A stretch of 53,403 nt of DNA from positions 1 to 53,403 of the forward strand of contig JAUNHQ010000014.1 of the NCBI GenBank assembly GCA_030535425.1. Reading direction: 5' to 3'. This document shows, piece after piece, positions 10,784-48,718 of the stretch (the stretch's first letter is position 1; every line of letters begins with the position of its first letter). The notes below the pieces were generated by a model. The model did not search any database, was not told the DNA's origin, and saw only the letters and a list, made by a program, of their open reading frames with translations. The stretch comes from Pseudomonadota bacterium. GTDB lineage: Bacteria; Pseudomonadota; Gammaproteobacteria; Burkholderiales; Burkholderiaceae_C. The translations under genes and the position numbers were made by a program.

Positions 10784-10833
10784 ACTATTTATTTCATAGC
10801 TTCACCCGCGCATCAACAAAGCGCGAAAAGCCT
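10784..10833 (+). repeat. Dispersed hairpin repeat, forward copy
   Basis: CTAT, 7-nt loop, ATAGC, then GCGCATCAACAAAGCGC and GAAAAGCC. The spacing of the CTAT/ATAG arms matches other copies, but the left outermost base is changed. It lies between chrA and the UbiH-type gene. Confidence 0.6.
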
Positions 10834-10879
10834 GTGCAAGCCATAATTCGCACCGACCTGCCGCCAGACTGGCTGCACC

Positions 10880-10885
10880 TACAAT
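10880..10885 (+). promoter_or_regulatory. -10-like element TACAAT just upstream of the UbiH-type gene
   Basis: TACAAT ends 11 nt before the ATG at 10897, so a transcript starting 6-7 nt downstream would carry almost no leader. No convincing -35 is visible, and no Shine-Dalgarno precedes the ATG. Confidence 0.4.
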
Positions 10886-10896
10886 GTTTTTTCACC

Positions 10897-12027
10897 ATGG
10901 CTGTCAAACACGACATCTGCATTCGCGGCGCTGGCATCGTGGGCCGCACGCTGGCGCTGCTGCTGGCGCGTGAGCGCCTGCGCGTAGCGCTGGTGGCGCC
11001 TCCTGCCAGCGCCGTACCTGCCCCTTCCGATGTGCGGGCCTATGCCCTCAGCCCTGCCTCGCGTCAGTTGCTCGAAAGTCTGCGCTGCTGGCCCGAGCCG
11101 CACCAGGCCACCGCCGTGCTGGCCATGCAGGTGCATGGAGATGCGCAAGGCGTCACGCATTTCAGCGCACAGACGCAAGACGTGCCTGCGCTGAACTGGA
11201 TTGTGGACGTGCCCGCGCTCGAACAACGCCTGGCCGATGCCTGCCAGTACCAAGGCAGCATCGACACCGTGCCCGCACCCGTGCCCGCCTGGCTGACCGT
11301 GGTATGCGAAGGTCGTGCCAGCCGCACACGGGCCGAACTGGGCGTGGACTTTCACGCCGTGCGTTACCCGCAAGATGCCATCGCCACACGCCTGACCTGC
11401 GAGCGCCCGCACGGGCAAACCGCGCGTCAGTGGTTCATGGCCGAAGGTGACATCCTGGCATTGCTGCCACTGGGCGGCGACCAGGGACGCGAAGTGGCCG
11501 TGGTCTGGTCGGTCGGCACCGACCGACTCGCGCCGCTGATGGAGCTGCCAGACACCGACTTTGCCGCGCGCCTGCACACGATCAGCGGCGGCGTCCTGGG
11601 CGCCCTGCACGTCAGCGCGCCTCGTGCCAGCTGGCCACTGCTGCTGGCGCATGCTGCGCGCTGGACTGGCCCCATGCCAGGCCGCCCGGGTGAAAGCTTT
11701 GCTCTGGCGGGCGACGCGGCCCATGCCATGCACCCCCTGGCCGGCCAGGGGCTGAACGTGGGACTGGGTGACGTGGCCGAGTTGGCCCGCGTGCTGGCTG
11801 CGCGCGAATACTGGCGCACCCCGGCCGATCTGAAGCTGCTGCGCCGCTACGAGCGCGCACGCCAAGGCGCGTGGCTGCGCATGCGCCTGGCCACCGACGG
11901 GCTGCAACAGCTTTTTGGCCGCCGCGAAGCCGCTGCCGTGGCCCTGCGCAACTGGGGCATGCGTGCTTTCGACGTCAGTGGCCCGTTCAAAAACCACATC
12001 GCCCGCCTGGCCATGGAAAGCGGCTGA
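10897..12027 (+). CDS. UbiH/UbiF-family FAD-dependent monooxygenase
   Basis: Probable ubiquinone-biosynthesis aromatic hydroxylase. 376 residues from the ATG at 10897. The FAD-binding Rossmann motif is at residues 11-16 (GAGIVG). The second family signature, GDAAHAMHPLAGQGLNVGLGD, lies near 271-291. NADPH/substrate-side sequences are less conserved. UbiH, UbiF, UbiI and UbiM cannot be told apart here, so no symbol is given. dsbC follows after 59 nt on the same strand. An upstream GTG/ATG extension was rejected because the Rossmann fold starts at once from 10897. Confidence 0.88.
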   Translation: MAVKHDICIRGAGIVGRTLALLLARERLRVALVAPPASAVPAPSDVRAYALSPASRQLLESLRCWPEPHQATAVLAMQVHGDAQGVTHFSAQTQDVPALNWIVDVPALEQRLADACQYQGSIDTVPAPVPAWLTVVCEGRASRTRAELGVDFHAVRYPQDAIATRLTCERPHGQTARQWFMAEGDILALLPLGGDQGREVAVVWSVGTDRLAPLMELPDTDFAARLHTISGGVLGALHVSAPRASWPLLLAHAARWTGPMPGRPGESFALAGDAAHAMHPLAGQGLNVGLGDVAELARVLAAREYWRTPADLKLLRRYERARQGAWLRMRLATDGLQQLFGRREAAAVALRNWGMRAFDVSGPFKNHIARLAMESG

Positions 12028-12086
12028 GCGTCATCCGCCCCATTGCCGCCGTTGCTTGACATTTTTTGCACCTCCTTTAACGCCCT

Positions 12087-12800
12087 ATGACACTGCACCC
12101 TGCCCTTCGCGCCAGCCTGGCCGTCTTTGCCCTGGCCCTGCCGCTGGCCGCTGCCGCCCAGGAGGCGGCCATCCGCAAAAACCTGGCCGAGCGCGTGCCC
12201 GGCCTCAGCCAAATCGACGAGGTACGCCCAACACCCATGAGCGGCCTGTACGAAGTGCGCGTGGGCACGGACATCATCTACACCGACGCCGAGGGCAACT
12301 TCCTGCTGCAAGGCAGCCTGCTGGACACGCGCGCGCGCAAGAACCTGACGGAAGAACGCATTGAAAAGCTCACCGCCATCCAGTTTGGCGAGTTGAACCT
12401 CAAACACGCCTTCCGCACCGTGCGTGGCAACGGCAAGCGCAAGCTGGCCGTGTTCGAGGATCCCAACTGTGGCTACTGCAAGCGCTTCGAGAAAGACTTG
12501 CAGCAGATCGACAACGTAACCGTTTACTACTTCCTGATCCCCATCCTGGGTGAAGACTCGGCGGAAAAATCCCGCCAGATCTGGTGCGCTAAGGATCGCA
12601 ACAAGGCCTGGCTCGACTGGATGCTGCGCGATGTCACCCCCAAAGGCAGCCCCAGTTGCAACACCGACGCACTGACCGCCAACATGGACTTTGCGCGCAA
12701 ATACCGCATCACCGGCACCCCCACCGTGGTCTTTGCCGACGGCACGCGCGTGCCGGGCGCCATCAACGCGCAGCAGATCGAACAGTTCCTCTCGCGCTAG
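12087..12800 (+). CDS. dsbC: Periplasmic thiol:disulfide isomerase DsbC
   Basis: Homodimeric protein that shuffles wrong disulfides in the periplasm and is kept reduced by DsbD. 237 residues: signal peptide at 1-24 (ending LAAAAQ), N-terminal dimerisation domain (VRPTPMSGLYEVRVGTDIIY) and a thioredoxin fold with active site C128-G-Y-C131 in FEDPNCGYCKRF. The cis-proline region reads ITGTPTVVF. A second Cys pair (WCAKD and SCNTD) matches the structural disulfide of the family. It follows the UbiH-type gene; a DUF3429 gene starts 37 nt downstream. Confidence 0.95.
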   Translation: MTLHPALRASLAVFALALPLAAAAQEAAIRKNLAERVPGLSQIDEVRPTPMSGLYEVRVGTDIIYTDAEGNFLLQGSLLDTRARKNLTEERIEKLTAIQFGELNLKHAFRTVRGNGKRKLAVFEDPNCGYCKRFEKDLQQIDNVTVYYFLIPILGEDSAEKSRQIWCAKDRNKAWLDWMLRDVTPKGSPSCNTDALTANMDFARKYRITGTPTVVFADGTRVPGAINAQQIEQFLSR

Positions 12801-12837
12801 CCTCCAAACGCCACAGCGCCTGCTGCTGGTCACGCCC

Positions 12838-13335
12838 ATGCGCCGCCCGCTCCCGCCAGACAACACCGCCCAGGCTCTGCTGGCCTCGACCAGCACACCG
12901 CGCTGGCGGCTCATCTACGTGCTGATCTACCTGGCCCTGGGGCTGTTTGCTCTGCTCGCACTGCTCACATGGACACCTCACCCCGGCATGCAGGCGCTGG
13001 TTTTGCAGGCGCTCACCGGCTACGCCGCCCTGCTGGTTAGCTTCACCGGAGGACTGCACTGGGGCGTGGGCCTGCGCTATCTGGCCACCACCTCGCGCGT
13101 GCCCGCCTTTCACTTCGTCTGGGGGCCACTGCCTGCGCTCCTGGCCTGGGGTGCCATGCTGCTGCCTGCACACTTGGGCCTGCTGCTCATGGCCGCCGTG
13201 TACGCCCTGGCTCATTTGGTGGATGTGCGCGTCTGGCCCGGCAGCGGCCTGGCCCCTTGGGTGCCGCTGCGCCAGCAGTTCACCGTGGGCGCCATGGCCT
13301 GCTGCGTGCTGGGCGCGGTGGCCACCCCCTGGTAA
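12838..13335 (+). CDS. DUF3429 integral membrane protein
   Basis: 165 residues from the ATG at 12838. About five hydrophobic helices are predicted. VSFTGGLHWGVGLR near residue 65 matches the conserved signature of DUF3429 proteins, and the C-terminal WVPLRQQFTVGAMACCVLG is also typical. Function unknown. The longer frame begins inside dsbC and was trimmed. It lies 17 nt upstream of the M61 peptidase gene and is probably cotranscribed with dsbC. Confidence 0.82.
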   Translation: MRRPLPPDNTAQALLASTSTPRWRLIYVLIYLALGLFALLALLTWTPHPGMQALVLQALTGYAALLVSFTGGLHWGVGLRYLATTSRVPAFHFVWGPLPALLAWGAMLLPAHLGLLLMAAVYALAHLVDVRVWPGSGLAPWVPLRQQFTVGAMACCVLGAVATPW

Positions 13336-13352
13336 AGCACCGGCCCTCACCC

Positions 13353-15200
13353 ATGCCTGCCAAGCCTTTGCCCATGCCTTCTGCTGCTTCCTCTTCCCGC
13401 CGTGTCAGCAGCCCGCCGCTGCACTACACCGTCAGCGTCGCCAGCCTGGGCGGCCACCGCTGGGCCGTGCAACTGCGCATCGCCCGCCCGGCGGCTTGCC
13501 AGCGCGTGTCCTTGCCTGTGTGGATACCGGGCAGTTACCTCGTGCGTGAATTCGCCCGCCACCTCAACGGCCTGAACGCCCGCCAGGGCCGCACGGCCCG
13601 CGCCTTGCAGCAAGTGGACAAATGCACCTGGGACATCCACTGTGACCCCGCGCAGCCCCTGGTGCTGCACTACGAGGTCTATGCCTTCGACGCTTCCGTG
13701 CGCACCGCCTGGCTGGATGCGCAGCGCGGCTTTTTCAACGGCACCAGCCTGCTGCTGCGCGTGCATGGGCAGGAAGACAGCCGCCACACCCTCAGCCTGC
13801 CCCCGCCCAGCCACGCTCCCGACTGGCAGTTGGCTACCGCCATGACCGCCGTGCGCACCGATGAACGCGGCTTTGGCCTGTACACCGCCAGCAGCTATGA
13901 GGAACTGGTGGATCACCCCGTGGAAATGGGTGCCTTCTGGAGCGGCAGCTTCACCGCCTGCGGCGTGCCTCACCGCTTCGTGGTGGCGGGTGCGCCACCT
14001 TCTTTTGATGGCGAACGCCTGCTGCGCGATACGCAGCGCATCTGCGAAGCCGCCATCCGCTTCTGGCACGGCGCCGAACCGCCTCCGCACCGCCACTACG
14101 TGTTCATGCTCAACGCCGTGCACGACGGCTATGGCGGGCTGGAGCACCGCGCCAGCACCGCCCTCATCTGCACCCGCACCGACCTGCCCCGCCTGGGCGC
14201 CCCTGCGGATGCCGCCAGCGTGGGCGAGGGCTATCTCACTCTGCTGGGCCTCATCAGCCACGAATACTTCCACACATGGAACGTCAAGCGCCTCAAGCCT
14301 GCCGAATTCGCCTCTATCGACTGGCAGCGCGAAAACCACACCCGCCTGCTGTGGTTCTTCGAAGGCTTCACCAGCTATTACGACGACCTGCTGCTGCGCC
14401 GCGCCGGCCTGATCGACGACAACACCTATCTGAAACTGCTGTGCAAAAGCATCAACCAGGTGCAGCAGGCTCCGGGGCGCCATGCCCAGTCGGTGGCGCA
14501 GGCCAGCTTTGACGCCTGGGTGCGTTACTACCGCCCTGACGAAAACACGCCCAACAGCACCATCAGCTACTACAGCAAAGGCGCGCTGGTCGCCCTGTGC
14601 CTGGACCTGAGCCTGCGCCAGCAAGGCGCAGGCTCACTGGACGACACCATGCGCACGCTATGGCAGCGCTGCCAGGGCGGCCCCCTTACCGAAGAAGACA
14701 TCGCCCAGGCCTTGCACACGCAGGCGGGCCGATCCTTTGCACGCGAGTTGGCCGACTGGGTGCACGGCACCAGCGAGTTACCCCTTGAGCGCCTGCTCAC
14801 CGCCCAGGGCGTGCGCGTGCGCCACGAGCCCTCGCAACTGGCCCAGACCCTTGGCCTGCGCGTCAACGACAGCGGCGGCGCCATCGTCCTCAAAACCGTG
14901 CTGGCCGGCAGCCCGGCCGAGCAAGCCGGCATGGCCGCGGGCGATGAATGGCTGGGTCTGGAAGTGCCCCCGCCGCGCCGCCGAGGCCCGCAACGCACCG
15001 CCAGCGAGTCCAGCGCCTGGCGCCTGAGCAAGCTGGACGATGTGCCGCTGTACGCAGGCAACGCACGCGCCGTCACGGCCCTCATCGCGCGCGACAAGCG
15101 CCTGCTTCGCCTGCCGCTTGCCCTGCCCGCCACCAGCGCCACCACCTGGCAGCTGCAAGCCGCCGAGCCTGCACAGGCTGGCCCATGGCCGGGGCGCTGA
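13353..15200 (+). CDS. M61 family metallopeptidase with PDZ domain
   Basis: Glycyl-aminopeptidase-like zinc peptidase, 615 residues. The N-terminal beta domain covers about 15-190. The catalytic domain has HEYFH at 303-307 in LISHEYFHTWNVKRLKP and the third zinc ligand region FFEGFTSYYDDL with E337. The YYSKGALVALCLDL helix follows, and a PDZ-like domain is at about 490-590 (GGAIVLKTVLAGSPAEQAG). No signal peptide is obvious at the chosen start, and an ATG at 13374 is possible. The end overlaps the start of the DUF3108 gene by 16 nt, suggesting translational coupling. Confidence 0.92.
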   Translation: MPAKPLPMPSAASSSRRVSSPPLHYTVSVASLGGHRWAVQLRIARPAACQRVSLPVWIPGSYLVREFARHLNGLNARQGRTARALQQVDKCTWDIHCDPAQPLVLHYEVYAFDASVRTAWLDAQRGFFNGTSLLLRVHGQEDSRHTLSLPPPSHAPDWQLATAMTAVRTDERGFGLYTASSYEELVDHPVEMGAFWSGSFTACGVPHRFVVAGAPPSFDGERLLRDTQRICEAAIRFWHGAEPPPHRHYVFMLNAVHDGYGGLEHRASTALICTRTDLPRLGAPADAASVGEGYLTLLGLISHEYFHTWNVKRLKPAEFASIDWQRENHTRLLWFFEGFTSYYDDLLLRRAGLIDDNTYLKLLCKSINQVQQAPGRHAQSVAQASFDAWVRYYRPDENTPNSTISYYSKGALVALCLDLSLRQQGAGSLDDTMRTLWQRCQGGPLTEEDIAQALHTQAGRSFARELADWVHGTSELPLERLLTAQGVRVRHEPSQLAQTLGLRVNDSGGAIVLKTVLAGSPAEQAGMAAGDEWLGLEVPPPRRRGPQRTASESSAWRLSKLDDVPLYAGNARAVTALIARDKRLLRLPLALPATSATTWQLQAAEPAQAGPWPGR

Positions 15201-16546
15201 CCCCCGCCCGCCCCGGCGGGCGGGCCCTGGCCGTCGCCCTGGGCCTGGCCCTGCTGGCCCATGCCCTGGCCCTTGGCCTGCTGGGCCGCCTGCTGCGCCC
15301 GCCCAGCCTGCTCAGCGACGTGGCCACCCCCTTCTACACCCGCACCCTCATGCCCGAGGCGCCCGCCCCCCTCGCCGCCCTGGCCACCTCCGCCGTCACC
15401 ACGGCCCCGGCCCGCCCCACCGCCGTGCTGCGCCCCGCCGACGCCCTGGACACGCCCCAGCCCACCCCGCCCAGCCCGCCTGCCAGCACCCCTGAGGCAG
15501 TCCCTGAACCTGCGCCTGAACCCAGCCCGCCCCGCCCAGCAGACGCGCCAGACACAGCAGACAGCCCCGCCACGCCACCCGCACCCAGCCCTCCTGCCCC
15601 ATCCGGCCCTGACGACACCATGCCCGTGTCCGCACCCGAGCCATCACCTGAGCTGGCACTGGAGCCCGCGCCCGAGCCTGCCACGCCCACTTCTGCCACT
15701 GCCCTGCCCGAACCCGCCCAGACCAGCGCCGATACCGCACATCCCCCTGCGCCTGACACCCCAGCCTCCCTGCCCAGCCCGCCTGCCTCCACCGCCTCGG
15801 CCACCTCGGTCGCCGCAGCAGAAGCCCTCCCTGCCGACGACACCCCCGCCGAAGCCGCCCAGGCACCCGCCAGCGCCGCCGCTTCTGCGGCCAGCCCCGC
15901 CTTCCTTGCCACCTGGCCCACCGACACCCGCCTGCGCTACCGCCTGGGCGGCTACTACCGGGGCGAGCTGCACGGCGATGCCCAGGTACTCTGGCAGCGC
16001 CAGGGCACGCGCTACCAGGCCACGGTGCAGCTGGACGTAGGCATCCTGCTCAGCTCGCGCTTTACCAGCCAGGGCGACATCACCCCCCAGGGCCTGCGTC
16101 CCGAGGTCTATGAAGAACAAATACGCCAGCGCCGCCGCGGCGTGCGCATGAGCGAAGACGTGCGCCTGAACAACGGCCAGCGCCTGCCCCGCCCCGCCGC
16201 CGAACTGCAAGACGCCGCCAGCCAGTTCGTCGAGCTGGCCCACCGCTTTGCCACCGGCCGCGCGCCCCTGACACCCGGCAGCCGCATCGACTTCTGGCTC
16301 GCCCGCCCCAACGGCGTGGACGAGTGGACTTACGACGTCATCGGTGAGGAAACACTGCACCTGCCCCGGCTCGGCCCGGTGCAGGCCTTTCACCTCAAGC
16401 CCCGCCCCCTGTCCAAGCCCAGCGGCAGCATCAGCGCCGAAATCTGGTTTGCCCCCAGCCTGCAATACCTGCCCGTGCGCATCCGCCTCACCCAAGGTGC
16501 CGACACCCACATGGATCTGCTGGTCGAAACCGTCGAGCAGCAATAA
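15185..16546 (+). CDS. DUF3108 protein with long Pro/Ala-rich linker and N-terminal anchor
   Basis: 453 residues. One N-terminal hydrophobic helix (ALAVALGLALLAHALALGLLG) is followed by some 200 residues of Pro/Ala/Ser/Glu-rich low complexity (about 60-245) and a folded C-terminal domain (FLATWPTDTRLRYRLGGYYRG onward) of the DUF3108 type, including LDVGILLSSRFTSQGDI and AEIWFAPSLQYLPVRIRL. The layout resembles TonB-like periplasm-spanning proteins: an anchor, an extended spacer and an outer domain. Function unknown. It overlaps the M61 gene by 16 nt. The stop is 1 nt from a dispersed repeat copy. Confidence 0.85.
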   Translation: MAGALTPARPGGRALAVALGLALLAHALALGLLGRLLRPPSLLSDVATPFYTRTLMPEAPAPLAALATSAVTTAPARPTAVLRPADALDTPQPTPPSPPASTPEAVPEPAPEPSPPRPADAPDTADSPATPPAPSPPAPSGPDDTMPVSAPEPSPELALEPAPEPATPTSATALPEPAQTSADTAHPPAPDTPASLPSPPASTASATSVAAAEALPADDTPAEAAQAPASAAASAASPAFLATWPTDTRLRYRLGGYYRGELHGDAQVLWQRQGTRYQATVQLDVGILLSSRFTSQGDITPQGLRPEVYEEQIRQRRRGVRMSEDVRLNNGQRLPRPAAELQDAASQFVELAHRFATGRAPLTPGSRIDFWLARPNGVDEWTYDVIGEETLHLPRLGPVQAFHLKPRPLSKPSGSISAEIWFAPSLQYLPVRIRLTQGADTHMDLLVETVEQQ

Positions 16547-16547
16547 T

Positions 16548-16606
16548 GCTATTCTTTAGATAGCTAAAAACCCTTATTGAAAGCGCGCAAATGGCCTTTT
16601 TTATGC
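16548..16606 (+). repeat. Dispersed hairpin repeat, forward copy
   Basis: GCTAT, 7-nt loop TCTTTAG, ATAGC; then CCCTTATTG and AAGCGCGCAAATGGCC followed by TTTTTT. It starts one base after the DUF3108 stop and lies between convergent genes (DUF3108 and the hemoglobin gene). The T-run would suit termination of the plus-strand transcript. Confidence 0.85.
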
Positions 16607-16623
16607 ATAAGACCAGAGCCGCC

Positions 16624-17019
16624 TCACCCCGGACGGTTGCGCATCCAGTCGGCGGTCTGGAAAAAGCTCTGATTCAGCCGCTCGCGCAGCGCCGCATCCA
16701 CCCCTGTTTCGCGCATCGCCTGGTCCATGCAGGCCAGCCACTCATCACGCTCACGCACGCCAATCGCAAACGGCAAATGCCGCGCACGCAAACGCGGATG
16801 ACCAAAACGCTCTACATAGTGGTTTGGCCCGCCCAGCCAGCCGCACAAGAACCAAAACAGCTTGCGCCGCGCCTGCTCCAGTGAAGAGCCATGCGTGGCC
16901 CGCACTGCCGCGTAAGCCGGCTCCAGCTCCATCAGGTCGTAAAAACGCTCCACCAGCGCCTGCACACCAGGCTCGCCCCCGATCCACTCAAACGGCGTCA
17001 CCGGTGCCTGCCCGCTCAT
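16624..17019 (-). CDS. Group II truncated hemoglobin
   Basis: 131 residues, the full trHbII length. FEWIGGEPGVQALVERFYDLM is the A/B helix signature; WLGGPNHYVERFGHPRLRARH covers the EF loop with the proximal His region, and HLPFAIG follows. W and H residues typical of group II haem pockets are present (FLCGWLGG). Likely roles are oxygen or NO/ROS chemistry. The ATG at 17019 is preceded by GGGGAG at about 8 nt. Longer in-frame starts would add a non-homologous segment and were rejected. Confidence 0.92.
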   Translation of the reverse strand: MSGQAPVTPFEWIGGEPGVQALVERFYDLMELEPAYAAVRATHGSSLEQARRKLFWFLCGWLGGPNHYVERFGHPRLRARHLPFAIGVRERDEWLACMDQAMRETGVDAALRERLNQSFFQTADWMRNRPG

Positions 17020-17075
17020 GCACGAGCTCCCCACGCGTTGGGCCAAGCCGCCCGAACCGGCAAAAACAGAGTATC

Positions 17076-17133
17076 CAAAAAAGCCATTTGCGCTTGATAA
17101 ATAAAGGTTTTTAGCTATGTTTAATATAGCTAA
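17076..17133 (-). repeat. Dispersed hairpin repeat, reverse copy
   Basis: On the plus strand: AAAAAAGCCATTTGCGCTTG, then AAAGG and TTAGCTAT, 7-nt loop GTTTAAT, ATAGCTAA. An 8-bp perfect arm pair. It lies between DUF3185 and the hemoglobin gene on the minus strand, in the intergenic region upstream of the latter. Confidence 0.85.
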
Positions 17134-17146
17134 ATCACCTACCTCA

Positions 17147-17368
17147 TCAGGGCTTCCTGCTCCCCAGCACCAGCAGCAGCACCCCCACCGCAATCGCCCC
17201 GCCGCTGGCCCACAGAGGAATGTTCACGTTTTTCCTCTCCTCCACTTTCAACTCCAGCGGACCGATCTTGGCTGCCGTCGTGTCCTTGGTAAAGCTGAAG
17301 CCGCCCGTGAACACCCCGGCCAAGCCCGCCAGAACAAACACGATGCCGATGATGCCAATGGGTTTCAT
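17147..17368 (-). CDS. Small DUF3185-type membrane protein
   Basis: 73 residues with two hydrophobic helices: IIGIVFVLAGLAGVFTGGF at the N-terminus and GGAIAVGVLLLVLG at the C-terminus. The middle segment KIGPLELKVEERKNVNIPLWAS is the DUF3185 hallmark. Function unknown; related proteins are inner-membrane peptides of many Proteobacteria. It is transcribed towards the hemoglobin gene with a repeat copy between them. Confidence 0.82.
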   Translation of the reverse strand: MKPIGIIGIVFVLAGLAGVFTGGFSFTKDTTAAKIGPLELKVEERKNVNIPLWASGGAIAVGVLLLVLGSRKP

Positions 17369-33649: not shown

Positions 33650-34001
33650 TGGGCTGTCCCGCAGGCCAGGGCATACCATCAAACGGCTGGCTTTCAAACC
33701 GATGGCTTTCGCGCCAGGACAAAGCGCCAAGCGCAGCGACACTTAGGCGGTATCACGAAAATGGGCCACGCGGCCCTGCTGCACCGACGGAACCGCAAGC
33801 TGCTGCGGCCACAGCCATCAAAACTATATTTTTGATAGCTTAAAACCATTACCAGAAGCGCGCAAATGGCATTTTTTATTCATCTCCTTTGCCCTGCCTG
33901 ACGTGCCTCACGTGGCCGGCCTGGCGCGGCCACACCTTAGTGCCCCAGGTGCGCCGCGCGACAATACGCGCCCTCTGTCTTTGCACGCCTTTGCCGCCGC
34001 C
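33650..34001. other. Intergenic region between msrA and the CbiM-like gene
   Basis: 352 bp. It contains a dispersed repeat copy (33822-33878) and a -10-like ACAATA at 33961-33966 upstream of the CbiM-like gene. No coding frame with support. Confidence 0.5.
33822..33878 (+). repeat. Dispersed hairpin repeat, forward copy
   Basis: CTAT, 7-nt loop ATTTTTG, ATAG, then ACCATTACC and AAGCGCGCAAATGGCATTTTTT. Lies between msrA and the CbiM-like gene, both plus strand. Confidence 0.85.
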
Positions 34002-34673: not shown

Positions 34674-34705
34674 CCCTTACCACAAGCGCGCAAACTGGCT
34701 TTTTG
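34656..34705 (+). repeat. Dispersed hairpin repeat, forward copy supplying a stop codon
   Basis: AAAACAATAGCG, then CCCTTACC and AAGCGCGCAAACTGGCTTTTT. The left hairpin arm is eroded. The C-terminus KNNSE and stop of the CbiM-like gene (stop 34671-34673) are encoded by it. Confidence 0.75.
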
Positions 34706-34740
34706 GCCATCTCTTCTTTTTGATTCATCGCCCTGCCCTT

Positions 34741-41667: not shown

Positions 41668-41697
41668 ACAAGCCCCAAACCAAAGCGAAAGCGGCAC

Positions 41698-42321: not shown

Positions 42322-42636
42322 CAGGATCGTCTCGAAACAACCCCAAAAAACATAGCAACCAACCCTTATAAATCCAGCGGAAAAACCCTTTCCGCACACA
42401 CCACCTTGACCAAATTTTCGCAGCGCATATCCACTGCCCGACATGAGCCGCTCACCCCCAACGCATCATGCAACGAGTGAGCAAACGCCCTGCGTCCAGC
42501 GGTCCGGGCACGCGACATGCAATGCATCAGCCAGCCTTTGCAGAAACGAGCGGCTGTGCGGCTTGCCCTCCTCTTCAAGCTGCGGCCCCCTGCCTGTGGC
42601 CATCCCCCCGCTCTGCCGCCACTGGCTGTGACTTGA
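42322..42636. other. Intergenic region upstream of the AraC regulator
   Basis: 315 bp, no gene seen. Contains an eroded dispersed-repeat copy (42345-42383) and a 7-bp hairpin GCGGAAA/TTTCCGC at 42377-42395 that overlaps its end. Confidence 0.5.
42345..42395 (+). repeat. Dispersed hairpin repeat, eroded forward copy
   Basis: CATAGCAACCAACCCTTATAAATCC is like other copies up to CCCTTAT, but AAGCGC is not intact. In its place GCGGAAA-AACCC-TTTCCGC forms a 7-bp hairpin with a 5-nt loop. Weak member. Confidence 0.5.
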
Positions 42637-43518
42637 ATGGACATCACCTCCCCGCCTGCCACCTTCATCGAGCGCCTTGCCGCCCTGGCCCAGCGCACGC
42701 GCCTGGGCACCGCCTGTTTTCATGCGCGCCATGCGCACGGCATCAAGTCCTTGCAGGTGGAACAGCCCTCGCTGGCCGTGGTGCTGCGCGGCAGCAAGCA
42801 GGTGCGCGCGGCGCAGTGCCAGGCGCTGCTGGCCCCCGGCGACATGCTGGTGCTGGCCCCCGGCGCACGGCTGGACGTGGCCCACCGCCCCGGCCCCGGC
42901 GGCGCGGGTTATCTGGCGCTGGGCCTGCCCTTGTGCGCGCAGGTGCTCAGCGCCGCGCGCAGCCTGTGGCCGCAGCCGCTGCAACCCGGCGCTGCCGTGG
43001 CCTGCCTGCCGGGGCATGTGCTGCAAGCCGATTTGCACGCGCTGGCCCAGGCCATGCACAGCGGCGACGAGCTGCAAGCGCGCATGGCCGTGCTGGCGCT
43101 GCTGATGCAGGCCGCGCGCCACGGCACGGCCAGCGTGCTGCTGCCGCCCGCACCCAGCCTGGCCGCGCAGCTGCGCCAGCTGGTGGCCCAAGCGCCCGCG
43201 CGGGCCTGGCAATCCATGGACTTTGAGCAGGCCCTGGGCATCAGCGGCGCCACGCTGCGCCGCCGCCTGGCGCAAGAAGGCACTGGCCTGCGCGAAGAGA
43301 TGGCCCAGGCCCGGCTGGCCTGCGCGCTGGACTTGCTCTACACCACGCGCCTGCCCGTCAAAACCGTGGCCGCGCGCGTGGGCTACCGCTCGGCCGAAAG
43401 CTTTTCGCGCCGCTTTCGCCAGCGCTACGGGCTGGAGCCATCGGCCATTGGCAATGGAACGGACAGCAATGCGACGGAGGGCCATGCGCCAGACAGCCCC
43501 GCGCGGATGAACGCCTGA
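42637..43518 (+). CDS. AraC-family transcriptional regulator
   Basis: 293 residues. N-terminal cupin-like domain with QPSLAVVLRGSKQV and LLAPGDMLVLAPG (AraC_N type). C-terminal double helix-turn-helix about 190-275: FEQALGISGATLRRRLAQEG, then PVKTVAARVGYRSAESFSRRFRQRYG. The inducer is unknown. It precedes an exported MBL-fold gene by 108 nt on the same strand, which could be a target. Confidence 0.88.
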   Translation: MDITSPPATFIERLAALAQRTRLGTACFHARHAHGIKSLQVEQPSLAVVLRGSKQVRAAQCQALLAPGDMLVLAPGARLDVAHRPGPGGAGYLALGLPLCAQVLSAARSLWPQPLQPGAAVACLPGHVLQADLHALAQAMHSGDELQARMAVLALLMQAARHGTASVLLPPAPSLAAQLRQLVAQAPARAWQSMDFEQALGISGATLRRRLAQEGTGLREEMAQARLACALDLLYTTRLPVKTVAARVGYRSAESFSRRFRQRYGLEPSAIGNGTDSNATEGHAPDSPARMNA

Positions 43519-43626
43519 AAGCCTGAGCGTCCCAAAACCTGAGCGTTTGACGCAGCAGACTGAGCGCCCGGCGCGGGCCAGGGCGCGTACCGTGCGAGGC
43601 TTGTTTCACTGTATTCGGGCTTTGCC

Positions 43627-44733
43627 ATGCCGCTTCAAACGGTCTCTTTCTTCTTTAGCCTGCCTGCGCGCCGCATGGCTGTGGTTGCCGCTGCCAGCCT
43701 GTGCGTGCTCAGCGGGCCTGCGCTGGCGCAAGGCGATGCCGCTGCGCCCACCGCGTCCACCGCGCCAGGCGCTGCATCTTCTGCTGCCCCACCTGCTGCC
43801 TCATCTGTCGTCTCAACGGCATCGGCGCAGGCGGCCGATTTCACCCAGGTGCCCGGCGTGTACCGCCAGCGCGTGGGCGACATGCAGGTCACGGCCTTGT
43901 TTGACGGCGTGGTCTTTTTGCCCGCCAGCGACATCAAGGGCCTGCCCCCGCAGCAGGCCGCGCGCTGGCTGGCCCGCGCCCACGTGCCGCAAACCGAACA
44001 GGGCTTGCAAACCGCCGTCAACGCCTACCTGGTGCGCGCGGGGGGCGAGCTGCTGCTGGTGGACACCGGCGCGGCCACCTGCTTTGGCCCCACGCTGGGC
44101 CAGGTGCCCGACCAGCTGCGCGCCGCCGGTGTGTCGCCCGATGCGGTGCGCCACGTGCTGCTGACCCATGCGCACCCCGACCACATCTGCGGCCTGCTGG
44201 ATGCGGGCGGCCAGCCCATCTACCGCAACGCCCGCGTGTGGCTCTCACAAGCCGATGCCGACTTTTGGCTGAGCGATGCCGCCCATGCCCGCGCCCCGCA
44301 AGCCTTGCGCGAGTTGATGGACATGGCCCGCCGCGCCGTGGCGCCGTACCAGGCCAGCGGGCGGTTTCACACCTTCACCCCTGGCCAGCCCGGCCTGCCC
44401 GCCGGGGCGCAGGCGCTGGCCACGCCGGGCCACACCGTGGGCCATGTGTCCTGGCTGCTGGGCGCGCCCGGCCAGCCGCAGCTGCTGGTGGCGGGCGACG
44501 TGGTGCATTTCCACGCCGTGCAGTTTCGCCAGCCCAACGTCAGTTACGCCTTTGACACCGACGCGCGACAGGCCAATGCATCGCGCCAGCGCCTGCTGGC
44601 CCAGGCCGCGCGCCAGGGCTGGCTGGTGGCCGGGGCGCACCTGCCGTTTCCGGGCCTGGGCCGCGTGAACGCGCAAGGCAAGGGCTGGCAATGGGTGCCG
44701 GTGGAGTTTGACCCCACCACGCTCACGCCCTGA
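43627..44733 (+). CDS. Exported MBL-fold metallo-hydrolase
   Basis: 368 residues. Signal peptide about 1-35 (MAVVAAASLCVLSGPALAQ), then an Ala/Ser-rich linker to 70. MBL signature VLLTHAHPDHICG near 185, ATPGHTVGH and VAGDVVHFHAVQF further on supply the other metal ligands. The fold resembles periplasmic quinolone/lactonase-like MBL proteins (FLIP-like). Substrate unknown. Preceded by the AraC gene. Confidence 0.88.
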   Translation: MPLQTVSFFFSLPARRMAVVAAASLCVLSGPALAQGDAAAPTASTAPGAASSAAPPAASSVVSTASAQAADFTQVPGVYRQRVGDMQVTALFDGVVFLPASDIKGLPPQQAARWLARAHVPQTEQGLQTAVNAYLVRAGGELLLVDTGAATCFGPTLGQVPDQLRAAGVSPDAVRHVLLTHAHPDHICGLLDAGGQPIYRNARVWLSQADADFWLSDAAHARAPQALRELMDMARRAVAPYQASGRFHTFTPGQPGLPAGAQALATPGHTVGHVSWLLGAPGQPQLLVAGDVVHFHAVQFRQPNVSYAFDTDARQANASRQRLLAQAARQGWLVAGAHLPFPGLGRVNAQGKGWQWVPVEFDPTTLTP

Positions 44734-44832
44734 AAGCGCCCGCGCAGCGGCCTTGCTCCGTTTTGCATGCAGGAGGCGCAAGACATAGCCCGCTCAGCCA
44801 GAGCCAGCCAACACGCAAGCCTTGACCGCGCG

Positions 44833-44872
44833 AAAAAAGCGCCTGCCTGGCATGACGCTCAGGCAGGCGCTT
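44833..44872 (-). terminator. Intrinsic terminator-like hairpin, T-run on minus strand
   Basis: AAGCGCCTGCCTG (44837-44849) pairs perfectly with CAGGCAGGCGCTT (44860-44872), 13 bp, 10-nt loop. Six A at 44833-44838 make a U-run for minus-strand RNA, but no minus-strand gene lies upstream of it. On the plus strand only TTT follows. Confidence 0.65.
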
Positions 44873-44971
44873 TGGCCATGCCCAGGGTCATACAGTCCGC
44901 GCCGCCCTGGGGCTGGCTGAAAAGCCACGGTGGCCTTGCTGGCGCGCAGCCTTGGTCATCCCTTTCAAGCC

Positions 44972-45027
44972 AAAAAGGCCATTTGCGCTTGTCTATCAAG
45001 CGCAAGCAGCTATGCTTTTTAAAGCGC
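44972..45027 (-). repeat. Dispersed hairpin repeat, reverse copy with a full second hairpin
   Basis: AAAAAGGCC, then TTGCGCTTG-TCTAT-CAAGCGCAA, a perfect 9-bp hairpin, then GCAGCTATGCTTTT. The copy that best shows the second palindrome of the family; the AGCTAT arm is present but its partner is not. Confidence 0.85.
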
Positions 45028-45253
45028 CATGCTTATGCCATGCAATGGAGGTCACACGCGCCTGGGCATGGCCTGCTCCAGCGTGTGCCATACCATCGCT
45101 TGCACATGCCCTTGCGCAGCCTGACAGATGCACGAACGCCGGCTGTTGCCGACCCCGCTGGACAAGCCCGCCAGATCGGCGGCAAAAACGGGTTGACGGC
45201 ATTTTCGACAAGTCCCAAGCAAAAACCCAGCCAGCCGAATAGACCCAGGACAA

Positions 45254-45907
45254 ATGGAATATTTAAAAAACCTCAGAGGCATTCTCAACCCCATCGACCG
45301 GATATCCGAAATACTGTTTGGCCTGCTCATGGCCATGACCATTTTGGGCACGATTTCCATTGCCCATGCCGGGCAGCAAGACGTGCGTTTGGCCCTGATT
45401 TCGGTATTAGGCTGCAACCTGGCCTGGGGCATGGTGGACGGCGTGATGTACCTGGTGCGCACGCTCGCGGGCCGGGCGCGCAACGTCCATCTGGCGCAAT
45501 GCGTGCAGCGTGCCGATGCGGCCACCGGCCGGCAATGGCTGCGCGAGGCCCTGCCCGAGGAAGTGGCGGCGCTGACGGCCCAAGACGAGCTCGAAGCCAT
45601 GCGCCAGCGCCTGCTGGCCCTGCCCGCCAGCCGGGTCAACATGCTGCGCGCAGACGATTATCTGGCCGCCATAAATATATTTTTGCTGGTCACGCTCACC
45701 ACCATTCCCCTGGCGCTGCCTTTTGTGTTTATTTCAGACATTCAAACGGCCATGCGCGTTTACCGCCTGATTTCCTTGTGCATGCTGTTTGCCTGCGGCA
45801 TGGCGTTTGCCCGTTATGCCGGGCATGCCAAGCCTGCGCGCATCGGTATGGCCATGGCGGTGCTGGGGTCCGTGCTCACCCTCATCATCATTGCCCTGGG
45901 GGGCTAA
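45254..45907 (+). CDS. VIT1/CCC1-like integral membrane protein
   Basis: 217 residues. Hydrophobic segments in pairs: ISEILFGLLMAMTILGTISIA near 18-38, ALISVLGCNLAWGMVDGVMYLV near 48-70 and a C-terminal set (INIFLLVTLTTIPLALPFVF; GMAMAVLGSVLTLIIIAL). Resembles a bacterial VIT family seen in many Proteobacteria; iron/manganese transport is inferred from fold similarity only. AGGA at 8 nt before the ATG. dinB starts 13 nt downstream, so the two are probably cotranscribed. Confidence 0.65.
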   Translation: MEYLKNLRGILNPIDRISEILFGLLMAMTILGTISIAHAGQQDVRLALISVLGCNLAWGMVDGVMYLVRTLAGRARNVHLAQCVQRADAATGRQWLREALPEEVAALTAQDELEAMRQRLLALPASRVNMLRADDYLAAINIFLLVTLTTIPLALPFVFISDIQTAMRVYRLISLCMLFACGMAFARYAGHAKPARIGMAMAVLGSVLTLIIIALGG

Positions 45908-45920
45908 GCTCGCCCACCCC

Positions 45921-47150
45921 ATGCCCCCTGCCCTGCCCCGTCGCATTGCCCATTTGGACATGGACGCGTTTTATGCGTCCGTGGAGTGGCTGCGCTACCC
46001 GCAGCTCAAGGGGCTGCCGGTGGTCATTGGCGGCGGCAGGCGGCGCGTTGATGAGCTGATTGCCCGGCTCAATGCCGAGCGGCCCGAGCGCCGCTGGACG
46101 CAGGCCGACTTGGCCGACATTCCCGTGGATTTTTTCCCGCGCCTGAAGGACTACACGGGCCGCGGCGTCATCACCACCGCCAGCTACGCTGCGCGCGCGT
46201 TTGGCGTGGGCTCGGCCATGGGGCTGATGAAGGCCGCGCGCCTGTGTCCGCAGGCCATTTTGCTGCCGGCGGACTTTGACGAATACCGCCGCTGCTCGCG
46301 CGCGTTCAAGGCCGTGATCCGCGACATTGCGCCGGTGATGGAAGACCGGGGCATTGACGAGGTGTACATCGACTTCACCCACGTGCCCGGCGGGCAGTGC
46401 GAAGGCGGGCGCGTGCTGGCCAGGCTGCTGCAAAAAAGCATCTTCCAGGCCACGGGGCTGACCTGCTCCATCGGCGTGGCGCCCAACAAGCTGCTGGCCA
46501 AGATGGCCAGCGAGTTCGACAAGCCCAATGGCATCAGCATCGTGCACGAGGCCGATGTGCAAACGCGCATCTGGCCCCTGCCCTGCCGCAAGGTCGGCGG
46601 CATTGGCCCCAAGGCCGAGGCCAAGTTGCACGCGCTGGGCATTCACACCCTGGGCGAGCTGGCCGCGCGCGAGCGCGATGAGCTGATGGCCCGCTTTGGC
46701 AAAAGCTACGGCGCCTGGCTGCACGAGGCGGCCTGGGGCCGCGACGAGCGGCCTGTGGTGACGCAAAGCGAGCCGGTCAGCATGAGCCGCGAAACCACCT
46801 TCGAGCGCGACTTGCACGCCGTGCGCGACCGCGCCGAGCTGAGCGCCATCTTCACCCGCCTGTGCGAGCAGGTGGCCGCCGATTTGCAGCGCAAGGGCTA
46901 TGCGGGCAAGACGATTGGGGTGAAGCTGCGCTATGGCGACTTCAAGACCGCCACGCGCGACACCACGGTGGCCGATTACACGCAGGATGCGCGGCGCATC
47001 CGCCAGGTGGCGGGGCAGGGTCTAAAGCGCGTGGACTTGTCGCGCCCGCTGCGCCTGCTGGGCGTGCGCGTGGGCTCGCTCATCAAGCAGGCCGACGTGC
47101 CCGCACCCGCTGCACCTGCGGCGCCTGAGCTGCCCTTGTTTCAGGATTGA
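45921..47150 (+). CDS. dinB: DNA polymerase IV (Y family)
   Basis: Error-prone translesion polymerase. 409 residues. RIAHLDMDAFYASVEWLRYPQL has the first catalytic Asp; MEDRGIDEVYIDFT the later pair. There is an insertion of about 35 residues between VVIGGGRRR and TGRGVITTASYAARAFGV, relative to E. coli DinB. The C-terminus ELPLFQD resembles a beta-clamp binding motif. The start at 45921 was chosen since IAHLDMDAFYASVE follows directly. Not seen to carry an SOS box. Confidence 0.93.
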   Translation: MPPALPRRIAHLDMDAFYASVEWLRYPQLKGLPVVIGGGRRRVDELIARLNAERPERRWTQADLADIPVDFFPRLKDYTGRGVITTASYAARAFGVGSAMGLMKAARLCPQAILLPADFDEYRRCSRAFKAVIRDIAPVMEDRGIDEVYIDFTHVPGGQCEGGRVLARLLQKSIFQATGLTCSIGVAPNKLLAKMASEFDKPNGISIVHEADVQTRIWPLPCRKVGGIGPKAEAKLHALGIHTLGELAARERDELMARFGKSYGAWLHEAAWGRDERPVVTQSEPVSMSRETTFERDLHAVRDRAELSAIFTRLCEQVAADLQRKGYAGKTIGVKLRYGDFKTATRDTTVADYTQDARRIRQVAGQGLKRVDLSRPLRLLGVRVGSLIKQADVPAPAAPAAPELPLFQD

Positions 47151-47160
47151 AGGCCCTGAT

Positions 47161-47216
47161 TGAAAAAGGCCATTTGCGCTTGATTGGCAAGGGTTTATAG
47201 CTATCTTACAGATAGC
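47161..47216 (-). repeat. Dispersed hairpin repeat, reverse copy
   Basis: AAAAAGGCCATTTGCGCTTG, then CAAGGGTTTATA and GCTAT, 7-nt loop CTTACAG, ATAGC; the loop ends C and G extend the stem. Lies between convergent dinB and the TlpA-like gene. Confidence 0.85.
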
Positions 47217-47263
47217 AAGCAGACGTTCCTCTTTTTGCCTGCTCGCAGACAGCGCTTGCCCAC

Positions 47264-47884
47264 TCACCAGCTGGCCCACCACAGCCGCAGGCGCATGCCC
47301 AGCTCGGTGGTGTAGCCCACGCTCACGGCGGCCATGCGCCCATCGGGCCGCAGCACCACCAGCGCGGGCACGGCGCCCAGGCCGTATTGGCGCGCCAATG
47401 CGCCCTGCGGGTCGATCACCGTGGCCCAGTCCAGCCCACGCTGCGCCAGCACACTGCGCACCGCCTCGGCGTTGCCCGAGCGCATGGCCACCGTGAGCAC
47501 CGGCCAGTCGCTTCCTACGCGGGTGATGTTGTGCTGCTCCAGCCGGCACACACCACACCATTCGGCCCAAAAATGCAGCGCCACGGGCCGCCCGGCATGG
47601 GCAGCGCGCCACTGCGCCAGGCTGAGCTGAGCCTGCGGCTGGGCGCTGACGGCCTGCGCCTGAAAATCCGGCGCCATGCCGCTGGGCACGTGGCGCGTCT
47701 GCCAAACGTGCACGCCCAGCAGCACACCCGCCACGGCAAGCAGATGCAGCCCCCAGCTGCGCAGCCGCGCGCGCCAGCGCCGGGCCGTGGCAGCAGGCGC
47801 GGCACGGGCTGGCGCTGGGTTTGGGTCTGCGCTTGGGACTGGGCTTGGGTCTGGGCTTGAAGCGGCTGCGCGGCGATCGGTCAT
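47264..47884 (-). CDS. TlpA-like membrane-anchored thioredoxin (protein disulfide oxidoreductase)
   Basis: 206 residues. Cytoplasmic Pro/Ala-rich head, one transmembrane helix at about 45-60 (HLLAVAGVLLGVHVW) and a periplasmic thioredoxin fold. Active site CxxC in FWAEWCGVCRLEQHN, cis-Pro region GAVPALVVLRPDG. Resembles ScsD/TlpA proteins that oxidise or reduce periplasmic disulfides; no operon partners such as ScsB. Divergent from bluB with 83 bp between. Confidence 0.85.
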   Translation of the reverse strand: MTDRRAAASSPDPSPVPSADPNPAPARAAPAATARRWRARLRSWGLHLLAVAGVLLGVHVWQTRHVPSGMAPDFQAQAVSAQPQAQLSLAQWRAAHAGRPVALHFWAEWCGVCRLEQHNITRVGSDWPVLTVAMRSGNAEAVRSVLAQRGLDWATVIDPQGALARQYGLGAVPALVVLRPDGRMAAVSVGYTTELGMRLRLWWASW

Positions 47885-47967
47885 GGGGCTGAACCATACT
47901 CCGGCTTTTTGCGGCGCCAGGCCACTGCACTGACCTGGCCCGCTTAGCTTGTGCCTGCCTGCTGCCC

Positions 47968-48642
47968 ATGCCCGACACCCCCGCCCTGCTGCCTGCCGAG
48001 CCCTTCACCGAGGCCGAACGCGCCGCCGTGTACCGCGCCATTCACGAGCGGCGCGACATGCGCCACTTCACCGGCGGCACGGTGGATGAAGCCGTGCTCG
48101 CCCGCCTGCTGCAAGCCGCACACCACGCGCCCAGCGTGGGCTTCATGCAGCCGTGGCGCTTCATCCGCATCCGGCAGACCGAGCGGCGGCGTGCCATTCA
48201 CGCGCTGGTGGAGCAAGAGCGCGTGAGCACCGCGCAAGCCCTGGGCCAGCGGCAAGACGAATTCATGCGCCTGAAGGTGGAAGGCGTGCTCGACTGTGCC
48301 GAGCTTTTGGCCGTGGTACTGCCGCCCGGACGGCAGGCGCACGTGTTTGGCCGCCGCACCATGCCCGAGATGGACCTGGCCTCTGCCGCCTGCGCCATTC
48401 AAAACCTGTGGCTGGCCGCCCGCGCCGAAGGGCTGGGCATGGGCTGGGTGTCGCTGTTCGACCCCGATGCCCTGGGCACGCTGCTGGCGCTGCCGCCCGG
48501 CAGCCGCCCCGTGGCCCTGCTGTGCCTGGGGCCGGTGGCCGGCTACTACGCGCAGCCCATGCTGGCCGAAACCGGCTGGGCCAGCCGCCTGCCGCTGCAC
48601 ACCCTGTGCATGGACGAGAACTGGCAAGACAGCGCGCCATGA
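47968..48642 (+). CDS. bluB: 5,6-dimethylbenzimidazole synthase BluB
   Basis: Oxygen-dependent nitroreductase-fold enzyme that turns FMNH2 into the lower ligand of cobalamin. 224 residues. ERRDMRHFTGG contains the key Asp after the first Arg pair; LLQAAHHAPSVGFMQPWRFIRI is the BluB FMN-binding signature, and GLGMGWVSLFDPDAL the C-terminal block. No other cobalamin biosynthesis genes nor a cobalamin riboswitch lie nearby. Convergent with serB, with a repeat copy between. Confidence 0.93.
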   Translation: MPDTPALLPAEPFTEAERAAVYRAIHERRDMRHFTGGTVDEAVLARLLQAAHHAPSVGFMQPWRFIRIRQTERRRAIHALVEQERVSTAQALGQRQDEFMRLKVEGVLDCAELLAVVLPPGRQAHVFGRRTMPEMDLASAACAIQNLWLAARAEGLGMGWVSLFDPDALGTLLALPPGSRPVALLCLGPVAGYYAQPMLAETGWASRLPLHTLCMDENWQDSAP

Positions 48643-48662
48643 CATCCAGCGTGAGAACTCAT

Positions 48663-48718
48663 GAAAAAGGCCATTTGCGCTTTTAAATAAAGGTTTTTAA
48701 GCTATACAAAAAATAGCT
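48663..48718 (-). repeat. Dispersed hairpin repeat, reverse copy reaching the serB stop
   Basis: AAAAAGGCCATTTGCGC, then AAATAAAGG and AGCTAT, 7-nt loop ACAAAAA, ATAGCT. The last base of the arm belongs to the serB stop codon. Convergent bluB and serB. Confidence 0.85.

What the first reader, a model, noticed from the sequence alone, without database searches (positions are those of the whole stretch)
10784..48718. Dispersed hairpin repeat family with conserved architecture, at least 12 intergenic copies in 38 kb
Copies at 10784, 16548, 17076, 22703, 26185, 27764, 33822, 34656, 42345 (eroded), 44972, 47161 and 48663 share one layout: a short hairpin with GCTAT and ATAGC arms, then a CCTTA-like segment, then AAGCGCAAATGGCC and T5-6. 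It occurs in both orientations, preferring gene ends: several copies lie between convergent genes (16548, 27764, 47161, 48663). The forward orientation ends in a T-run like a terminator. I know of no named family that fits this exactly; it may be a Comamonadaceae-specific REP/MITE-like element with a terminator or mRNA-stability role.
Basis: partly seen in the sequence, partly recalled or inferred. Interest (0 to 1): 0.72.

Follow-up and report, generated by a model that had tools for sequence, protein, structure and literature searches.

The report
Conserved DNA sites at gene ends
Hundreds of copies of one roughly 55-base DNA signal, mostly just after the ends of genes, are scattered through the chromosomes of one group of soil and water bacteria; comparison of two species suggests that evolution keeps the copies in place as a sequence read from the DNA itself, but what reads it is unknown.

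Summary
It is a rigid ~56-bp unit of two tandem dyads, TTGCTAT-N7-ATAGCT and GCGCTTG-N5-CAAGCGC, plus GGCC/T5.

The hairpin, terminator and mRNA-stability reading is not supported. Base pairs do not covary within a genome; copies between one-directional genes point with or against transcription about equally (83:97); 1 of 12 window copies overlaps a terminator-like match.

Between two related species, 49 of 55 (50 of 58 viewed the other way) copies with a syntenic counterpart are matched there. Motif positions differ 2.2% against 13-15% at spacer positions judged alike, inside genes too. So it is a DNA-level site held by selection or drive. Best guess: a chromosome-wide binding site for an unknown dimeric protein; a DNA-uptake signal is the main rival.

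Fragments are in print as unnamed motif pairs in two Comamonadaceae (PMC5217627). Bonus: Pfam DUF1010, including an integron cassette ORF, partly translates this element.

The parts
2546..2592 (+). additional element copy, inside a predicted gene
   Evidence: profile HMM 23.0 bits, E=2.5e-5
10783..10834 (+). element copy, tandem gene pair, same direction
   Evidence: 29.5 bits, E=2.4e-7
16547..16601 (+). element copy between convergent genes
   Evidence: 51.3 bits
17077..17131 (-). element copy, tandem, same direction
   Evidence: 40.1 bits
22705..22759 (-). element copy between divergent genes
   Evidence: 45.7 bits
26187..26242 (-). element copy, tandem, against the genes
   Evidence: 45.3 bits
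27766..27819 (+). element copy between convergent genes
   Evidence: 23.7 bits, E=1.5e-5
33824..33876 (+). element copy, tandem, same direction
   Evidence: 45.2 bits
34658..34704 (+). element copy, left arm eroded; overlaps the one terminator-like match at an element
   Evidence: 26.3 bits; scan match 34696-34709
42350..42391 (+). eroded, doubtful copy
   Evidence: 11.1 bits, E=0.13
44972..45025 (-). element copy with intact second dyad, tandem, against the genes
   Evidence: 45.4 bits
47163..47218 (-). element copy between convergent genes, behind a Y-family polymerase (dinB-like) gene
   Evidence: 52.1 bits; gene matches Pfam IMS
48664..48717 (-). element copy between convergent genes
   Evidence: 37.0 bits

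Best explanation
The element is a double-stranded DNA recognition site, not an RNA hairpin: two adjacent inverted repeats about 23 bp apart (about two helical turns), each with the geometry of a dimer-binding site, followed by a conserved GGCC/T-tract. Several hundred to about a thousand copies per chromosome (extrapolated) are bound, I infer, by one lineage-specific dimeric protein. Sites are kept one by one at fixed places. They sit mainly behind stop codons and between convergent genes because a 56-bp site does least harm there and, possibly, because that is where transcription-driven supercoils meet; a nucleoid-structuring or topology role, like that proposed for REP/BIME sites, is my guess. 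SHOWN: family, rigid layout, no covariation within a genome, no clear orientation bias between genes, constraint in place in one species pair, dialects between genomes. INFERRED: that a protein reads it, that it is a dimer, and the role.
For: Rigid layout: 62 copies align over 61 columns with one gap. All 32 perfect first dyads in the 442-kb sample lie in elements, spacer 7. Sequence, not pairing, is kept: 63.9% of cells paired against 63.9% in shuffles, RNAalifold predicts no structure, and in a second dialect paired counts are close to or below independence, e.g. 93 vs 95.7, 114 vs 112, 86 vs 88.6, 56 vs 66.3. Between genes strand-blind: 83 with, 97 against transcription in five genomes. Kept in place: 49 of 55 and 50 of 58 syntenic positions are matched in the other species. 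Motif columns differ in 11/495 and 12/535 cells against 66/500 and 81/536 at variable columns, both conditioned on the consensus letter (flanks 18%); 0 of 5000 permutations as low, done for the G288 view only. Copies inside genes behave alike (0/179 and 7/198). The second dyad differs on both arms between genomes, e.g. GCGCTTG/CAAGCGC, GCGCTTAT/ATAAGCGC (7 copies), GCGCA-CAT/ATG-n-GCGC (11 copies). Three G000 copies have a counterpart at the same place in the same relative orientation whose letters after GCGC are those of the other dialect.
Against: No binding protein was identified or searched for. Conservation in place would also follow from an uptake-driven bias, and it was measured in one species pair. 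Inside genes copies are not strand-blind: 37 of 52 in G288 and G010 face against the gene (p=0.003); I put this down to the TAG in ATAGCT, untested. In G000 the left arm of dyad 2 is eroded in most copies (55% of its cells paired), so dyad 2 need not be a symmetric site there, and both-arm change between genomes is not universal. Four convergent copies viewed from G010 gave 6/52 in motif columns against 8/59 in variable ones. Even spacing was not shown (CV 0.83 vs 0.91, 17% of the null as low), nor any position bias along a Polaromonas scaffold (KS p=0.45). Three of six syntenic G000 positions lack a copy in the G010/G288 sample.
Confidence: 0.5

Rival explanations
1. A DNA-uptake or self-recognition signal, like the uptake signal sequences of Haemophilus: competent cells take up DNA bearing it more readily, so copies accumulate and are maintained genome-wide by molecular drive.
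For: Abundance, both strands, conservation inside genes too, dialects between genomes, ComEC present in all 25 element-bearing genomes tested.
Against: ComEC is also in the 7 genomes tested that are poor in or free of the element (32 of 32 in all), so it does not discriminate. The long double-dyad form and the strong bias to gene ends are unlike the known signals (recalled).
Confidence: 0.18
2. A REP/MITE-like mobile element that spread long ago and was then domesticated or is decaying.
For: REP-like distribution at gene 3' ends. Some inverted pairs in G003 at a ~52-bp offset, seen in the listing. Two of the unmatched syntenic positions differ by gaps of about 85 and 105 bp, though with unclean junctions.
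Against: Median pairwise identity 0.59, maximum 0.86 among 80 copies, random flanks. In the 12 of 14 unmatched views whose alignment was printed I saw no clean element-sized insertion; the other two differ by about 600 and 1000 bp. Motif columns are constrained at each locus. G005 has 91 hits but no Y1_Tnp, and G012 has Y1_Tnp but one hit. Only a 15-bit hit lies near one of the host's two Y1_Tnp genes.
Confidence: 0.15
3. A transcription terminator or 3' mRNA-stabilising hairpin, possibly working in both directions.
For: Lies behind stop codons and between convergent genes. T-run at 78-93% per column in G000.
Against: No covariation. As many copies face against as with transcription between genes. 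T-run kept at 67-90% in those facing against, 82-91% in those facing with. The reverse strand has no T-run in the consensus. Terminator scan overlaps 1 of 12 window copies. 11-32% of copies lie inside predicted genes in the five genomes (10 of 89 in G000 to 19 of 60 in G010).
Confidence: 0.08

Closest known systems
Unnamed motif pairs ATAGCT(N)22CAAAAG of Polaromonas naphthalenivorans CJ2 and GCTTAT(N)5AAGCG of Acidovorax ebreus TPSY (PMC5217627; passages, section 13 in full)
   Same: Both are pieces of this element with the exact spacing: in the 389-kb G000 sample ATAGCT-N22-CAAA occurs 28 times, N21 and N23 0 times (the full printed CAAAAG form 2, 0, 0). GCTTAT-N5-AAGCG has 8 matches on both strands (5 sites) in 40 kb of G254 and 9 in 200 kb of G149, N4 and N6 0. 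Same gene-end bias in print (A. ebreus 44 convergent, 4 divergent, 59 co-oriented).
   Different: Printed as separate short motifs in single genomes with no function, in the passages I read not as one family; no test there of structure, conservation in place, dialects or range.
REP sequences / BIMEs with RAYT transposases (PMC3733652, PMC2817692: abstract starts and term searches only)
   Same: Hundreds of short palindromic extragenic copies, both orientations, at gene ends.
   Different: No GTAG/CGTC tag in the consensus, no dependence on Y1_Tnp, mostly shared in place between two species; both papers give 0 occurrences of the Comamonadaceae genera I searched.
Uptake signal sequences (Haemophilus USS; recalled, and mentioned in PMC5217627)
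   Same: Very many copies on both strands, in genes as well, species dialects.
   Different: Uptake untested; 56-bp double-dyad form.
BRE, Beta-proteobacterial repeat element (PMC3110155, section 14 read)
   Same: Repeat in Comamonadaceae and Bordetella, mostly intergenic.
   Different: ~90 bp, 69% G+C (Bordetella copies), tandem at some loci, at most 29 copies; our element is AT-rich in its first half, dispersed, hundreds of copies. Sequences not compared.

Membership tests
REP / RAYT | GTAG or CGTC tag at one end of a 20-40 bp palindrome | tested here: not met
   Consensus TTGCTAT...ATAGCT...GCGC...GGCCTTTTT has no such tag
REP / RAYT | Presence tied to a REP-associated Y1 transposase | tested here: not met
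   G005 (one contig, 99% complete), 91 hits, 0 Y1_Tnp; G012 has Y1_Tnp, 1 hit
REP / RAYT | Copies flank the transposase gene | tested here: inconclusive
   One 15.2-bit hit 0.3 kb from one of two Y1_Tnp genes of G000; the other gene not examined
Intrinsic terminator | G+C-rich hairpin directly followed by a T-run | tested here: not met
   1 of 12 window copies overlaps a scan match
Intrinsic terminator | T-run oriented with the upstream gene | tested here: not met
   83 with, 97 against (p)
Structured RNA element | Compensatory base changes | tested here: not met
   Within genomes; no Rfam match in the window at gathering score. Between genomes dyad 2 does change on both arms
MITE | Terminal inverted repeats | tested here: not met
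   The two ends of the consensus differ
MITE | Insertion at new sites (empty versus occupied sites) | tested here: not met
   No clean element-sized insertion in the 12 printed of 14 unmatched views, out of 113 syntenic views
MITE | Target-site duplication | not tested
   -
Uptake signal sequence | Many copies on both strands, conserved also in genes | tested here: met
Uptake signal sequence | DNA bearing it is taken up preferentially | not testable with these tools
   ComEC in 32 of 32 genomes does not discriminate
Motif pairs of PMC5217627 | Exact spacing of the printed motif pairs | tested here: met

The most novel reading that the evidence does not exclude
A chromosome-wide addressing system of one bacterial lineage: about 600-1000 double-dyad DNA sites per genome, read by an undiscovered dimeric protein, placed at gene ends, each held in place by selection, and changing as a set (dialects) as the reader protein changes. 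It would be a nucleoid-organising or DNA-recognition system with no described counterpart that I know of, and it leaves a footprint in a gene cassette of clinical class 1 integrons.
Probability: 0.33. Interest if true: 0.82.

Novelty: new variant of a known kind. Interest (0 to 1): 0.64.

Why it matters
In the sampled genome a quarter to two thirds of tandem and convergent gene ends carry one conserved DNA site (43 of 149 and 26 of 42), shared by dozens of genera (54 of 141 sampled); the reader protein could be fished out with a single biotinylated oligo. It also bears on a Pfam family: DUF1010 seems to model, in part, the translated element. DUF1010 ORFs, among them one between dfrA12 and aadA2 of a class 1 integron, whose element part is matched on 1747 plasmid records, would then carry a piece of this lineage's DNA and point to where that cassette came from.

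Tried and rejected
Rejected on evidence: RNA hairpin, one-way terminator, Rfam families (on 801 bases with a lax threshold gave only a snoRNA match at E=2.9, so my recalled lead of a betaproteobacterial toxic RNA family is dropped), recent mobility, RAYT dependence, replication-strand bias (61+: 53- in three G288 stretches whose overall GC skew has one sign; Polaromonas bins gave 17+:29- in the first four and 51+:34- in the last six, a weak unexplained trend), position gradient and even spacing.

Led nowhere or was flawed: the pattern had its spacer wrong by one base and its counts are not used (only positions of pairs in its listing are mentioned). One search stopped with an index error after printing its main rates; one search repeats it. 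In one search the re-trained profiles for G267 and G060 found only 2 copies each in 80 and 60 kb, where (290 and 324 perfect first dyads per genome) would lead one to expect about 6-7, so my profiles miss that dialect; G117 and G219 gave 2 and 3 copies in 28 and 60 kb, about what is expected. The pattern does not work for G164 and G251, where the reversed control (74, 56) exceeds the pattern (27, 28), and is weak for G052 (85 vs 47) and G234 (82 vs 19). The dinB comparison gave scattered, partly overlapping copies and no statistic. The exact-core scan of named genomes gave 5 stretches. Two viral scans gave 48 and 2 stretches, not analysed; a phage-record search gave 1 record, not followed. Rows dropped before the rates, as counted: 11 low-scoring, 8 by length, 14 with gaps, 1 with an indel against the model; 79 used (38 and 41). 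The two viewing directions are largely the same loci.

Literature: nine searches of the held library; four literal-sequence terms gave 0 papers. PMC2755013 (passages only): its palindromic repeats are CRISPR arrays.

Mended on re-checking the calls: the intragenic range, the number of insertion views, the scope of the permutation, the size of the last sample, the 'missed dialect' list, the opposite strand bias inside genes (not told before) and the integrase (now tested). One search was a submission in a wrong format.
Full report
OBSERVATION. A profile trained on the window and 389 kb of the same genome finds 11 of the 12 at E<0.01, puts 42345 at E=0.13, and adds 2546-2592. Genome-wide, the 19-base core with up to 3 mismatches has 325 matches against 1 for the reversed pattern in 3.31 Mb. 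In 442,403 bp there are 89 non-overlapping copies, one per 5 kb, or about 670 per genome by extrapolation.

ANATOMY. 62 copies (those of at least 33 bits) align over 61 columns with a single one-base gap. The unit is TTGCTAT-N7-ATAGCT, about five spacer bases, GCGCTTG-N5-CAAGCGC, then AAATGGCCTTTTT in this genome; in most G000 copies the left arm of the second dyad is changed (AAACCCTTG). Conservation starts and stops sharply and flanks are random (mean identity 0.27). Invariant or nearly so are the AGC of the first dyad and the GCGC of the second. Every perfect first dyad in the sample (32 of 32) lies in an element, and the spacer is 7.

NOT AN RNA HAIRPIN. The share of paired cells equals the shuffled mean (63.9%), the covariation score does not exceed shuffles, and RNAalifold predicts no pair. 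In a second dialect (183 copies of G288 and G010) the number of paired cells at each position is close to or below what independence gives. Between genes orientation to transcription is neutral when five genomes are pooled: 83 copies in one-directional gene pairs run with and 97 against the genes (p=0.33); G010 alone is 10:21 (p=0.07). Inside genes, however, 37 of 52 copies in G288 and G010 face against the gene (p=0.003); the forward strand holds a TAG in ATAGCT, which may explain this, untested. The T-run is kept at 67-90% per column in the against copies and 82-91% in the with copies of G000. This does not fit a one-way terminator or an RNA signal.

WHERE IT SITS. 26 of 42 convergent, 43 of 149 tandem and 6 of 55 divergent intergenic regions of at least 55 bp carry a copy in G000 (gene calls are mine, and approximate). 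In tandem pairs of four other genomes the median distance to the upstream stop is 9-35 bp in seven of eight genome-orientation groups and 80 bp in the against group of G003. Copies inside predicted genes: 10 of 89 (G000), 33 of 114 (G288), 19 of 60 (G010), 8 of 42 (G003), 10 of 36 (G149).

WHO HAS IT. With a covariance model (R1), 15 of 18 same-genus relatives and 0 of 12 genomes from other families of the order match at E<=0.01 (at most 150 candidates scored per genome). In the family, 84 of 250 genomes, the own one included, match at E<=0.001 with at most 21 candidates scored per genome. The bare pattern GCTATN{6,8}ATAGC has 20 or more sites in about 70 of 250 family genomes (hand count), up to 324, mostly against 0-9 for the reversed control; exceptions are G164 and G251 (control above pattern) and G052, G234 and G255 (controls 47, 19, 14). 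Named carriers: Polaromonas glacialis R3-9 (150 hits, the cap) and a Polaromonas MAG (73), and a Diaphorobacter plasmid.

DIALECTS. Consensi differ between genomes on one skeleton: G254 (7 copies) ...ATAGCTncnAGCGCTTATnnaATAAGCGCTAGAGGCcAtTTT; G149 (36) ...ATAGCTGCTngCGCTTgctnnncAAGCGCTA; G246 (11) ...AGCTGCtCGCGCAcatTCcatGnGCGC; G288/G010 (183) ...ATAGCTgcnnGCGCttgtcnggCaAGCGCtggnGgCcnatt. G000 with its one-sided change is an exception.

HELD IN PLACE. G010 and G288 are the closest pair found among the dinB-type loci compared (94.6% over 3.3 kb). Of copies with a syntenic counterpart, 49 of 55 (from G010) and 50 of 58 (from G288) have a copy there; 10 and 60 further copies had no syntenic counterpart in the sample. 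Of the 14 unmatched views, 12 were printed: degraded motifs, replaced intergenic sequence, or indels, two of them gaps of about 85 and 105 bp with unclean junctions; I saw no clean element-sized insertion. In gap-free aligned pairs (38 and 41 copies), motif columns (family frequency at least 0.9) differ in 11 of 495 and 12 of 535 cells, against 66 of 500 and 81 of 536 at variable columns conditioned on the consensus letter in the same way (sums over contexts), and 18% in flanks. No permutation of 5000 was as low (G288 view). Copies inside genes give 0 of 179 and 7 of 198. Four convergent copies viewed from G010 gave 6 of 52, a higher rate on few data. Against the more distant host genome, 6 of 89 copies could be placed: 3 have a copy at the same place in the same relative orientation, with GCGCAAA in G000 where the other has GCGCTGG or GCGCCAG; 3 have none.

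MECHANISM. A double-stranded DNA site is the reading that best fits strand neutrality between genes, rigid spacing, dyad form without covariation and constraint at each locus. What reads it is unknown. I favour a lineage-specific dimeric protein with an architectural or topological role, at 0.5 for the whole statement and about 0.8 for 'DNA-level site kept by selection or drive'. Drive by selective DNA uptake is not excluded; ComEC is in all 32 genomes tested, including 7 that are poor in or free of the element, so it says nothing either way.

PRIOR ART. PMC5217627 (passages and section 13) lists ATAGCT(N)22CAAAAG in P. naphthalenivorans (125 copies) and GCTTAT(N)5AAGCG in A. ebreus (114 copies) as potential novel motifs, with the same gene-end bias. 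Their spacings recur in our elements and not at one base more or less in the samples where they are frequent. I found no paper that joins them, names the family or tests it. BRE (PMC3110155, section 14) differs in length, composition and number.

SIDE FINDING. A copy from G254 matches 1747 plasmid records, mostly enterobacterial; 18 of the 20 listed rows carry 'DUF1010 domain-containing protein'. In the one examined it lies between dfrA12 and aadA2 of a class 1 integron (the cassette name gcuF is recalled). The ORF matches Pfam PF06231 at 3.3e-28, and the cassette sequence shows the family's core. PF06231 matches 13 of 18 genomes tested and none of 14 control genomes; it is absent from 4 element-poor ones but also from G039, which is element-rich. 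Of the 30 loci fetched, 27 overlap an element, some with stops in the frame; the 3 misses match only the later part of the profile and have an element within 115 bp. G149 and G101 carry clusters of such units at about 0.3-0.7 kb, and the G101 locus ends in the start of an integron integrase gene (TIGR02249, 1.6e-49, cut by the end of the locus). Repeated attC-like stretches were seen by eye only. So DUF1010 is at least partly a translation of this DNA element, and the clinical cassette probably came from a carrier's chromosome.

Noticed in passing
L217:2496-2545 (plasmid NZ_MZ513635.1); similar on 1747 plasmid records in all: A copy of the element lies, antisense, inside the DUF1010 ORF between dfrA12 and aadA2 of a class 1 integron; it points to a Comamonadaceae-type chromosome as the cassette's source. 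One record examined.
   Followed up: partly
PF06231 matches in L219-L248: Pfam DUF1010 overlaps the element in 27 of 30 fetched loci, some with stops in frame; the family is probably in part a translated repeat.
   Followed up: partly
G149:C1:1577472-1590608 and L219 (G101): Clusters of element-bearing DUF1010 units; in L219 beside the start of an integron integrase gene, with attC-like stretches by eye: chromosomal integrons.
   Followed up: partly
L102:11786-11906 and about 35 places in G288: A second, unrelated ~120-bp palindromic dispersed repeat in a same-genus genome.
   Followed up: no
G164, G251, G052: 47-74 copies of CGATAN{6,8}TATCG, the reversed control pattern: possibly another dyad family.
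   Followed up: no
G003:C1, e.g. 612438+/612490- and 1246387+/1246440-: Elements as head-to-head pairs at an offset of about 52 bp (listing), reminiscent of inverted REP pairs.
   Followed up: no
L064, L070, L078 (behind a dinB-like gene): In three relatives a variant element overlaps the stop codon and the last codons of the gene (by eye).
   Followed up: partly
G288 and G010 genes: Copies inside genes face against the gene in 37 of 52 cases, unlike copies between genes.
   Followed up: no
L040, L041: The exact core occurs in contigs binned as Chitinophagales and Uhrbacteria, probably misplaced contigs.
   Followed up: no
viral contigs L167-L216: 48 and 2 viral stretches match element patterns; one contig (L175) has three.
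   Followed up: no
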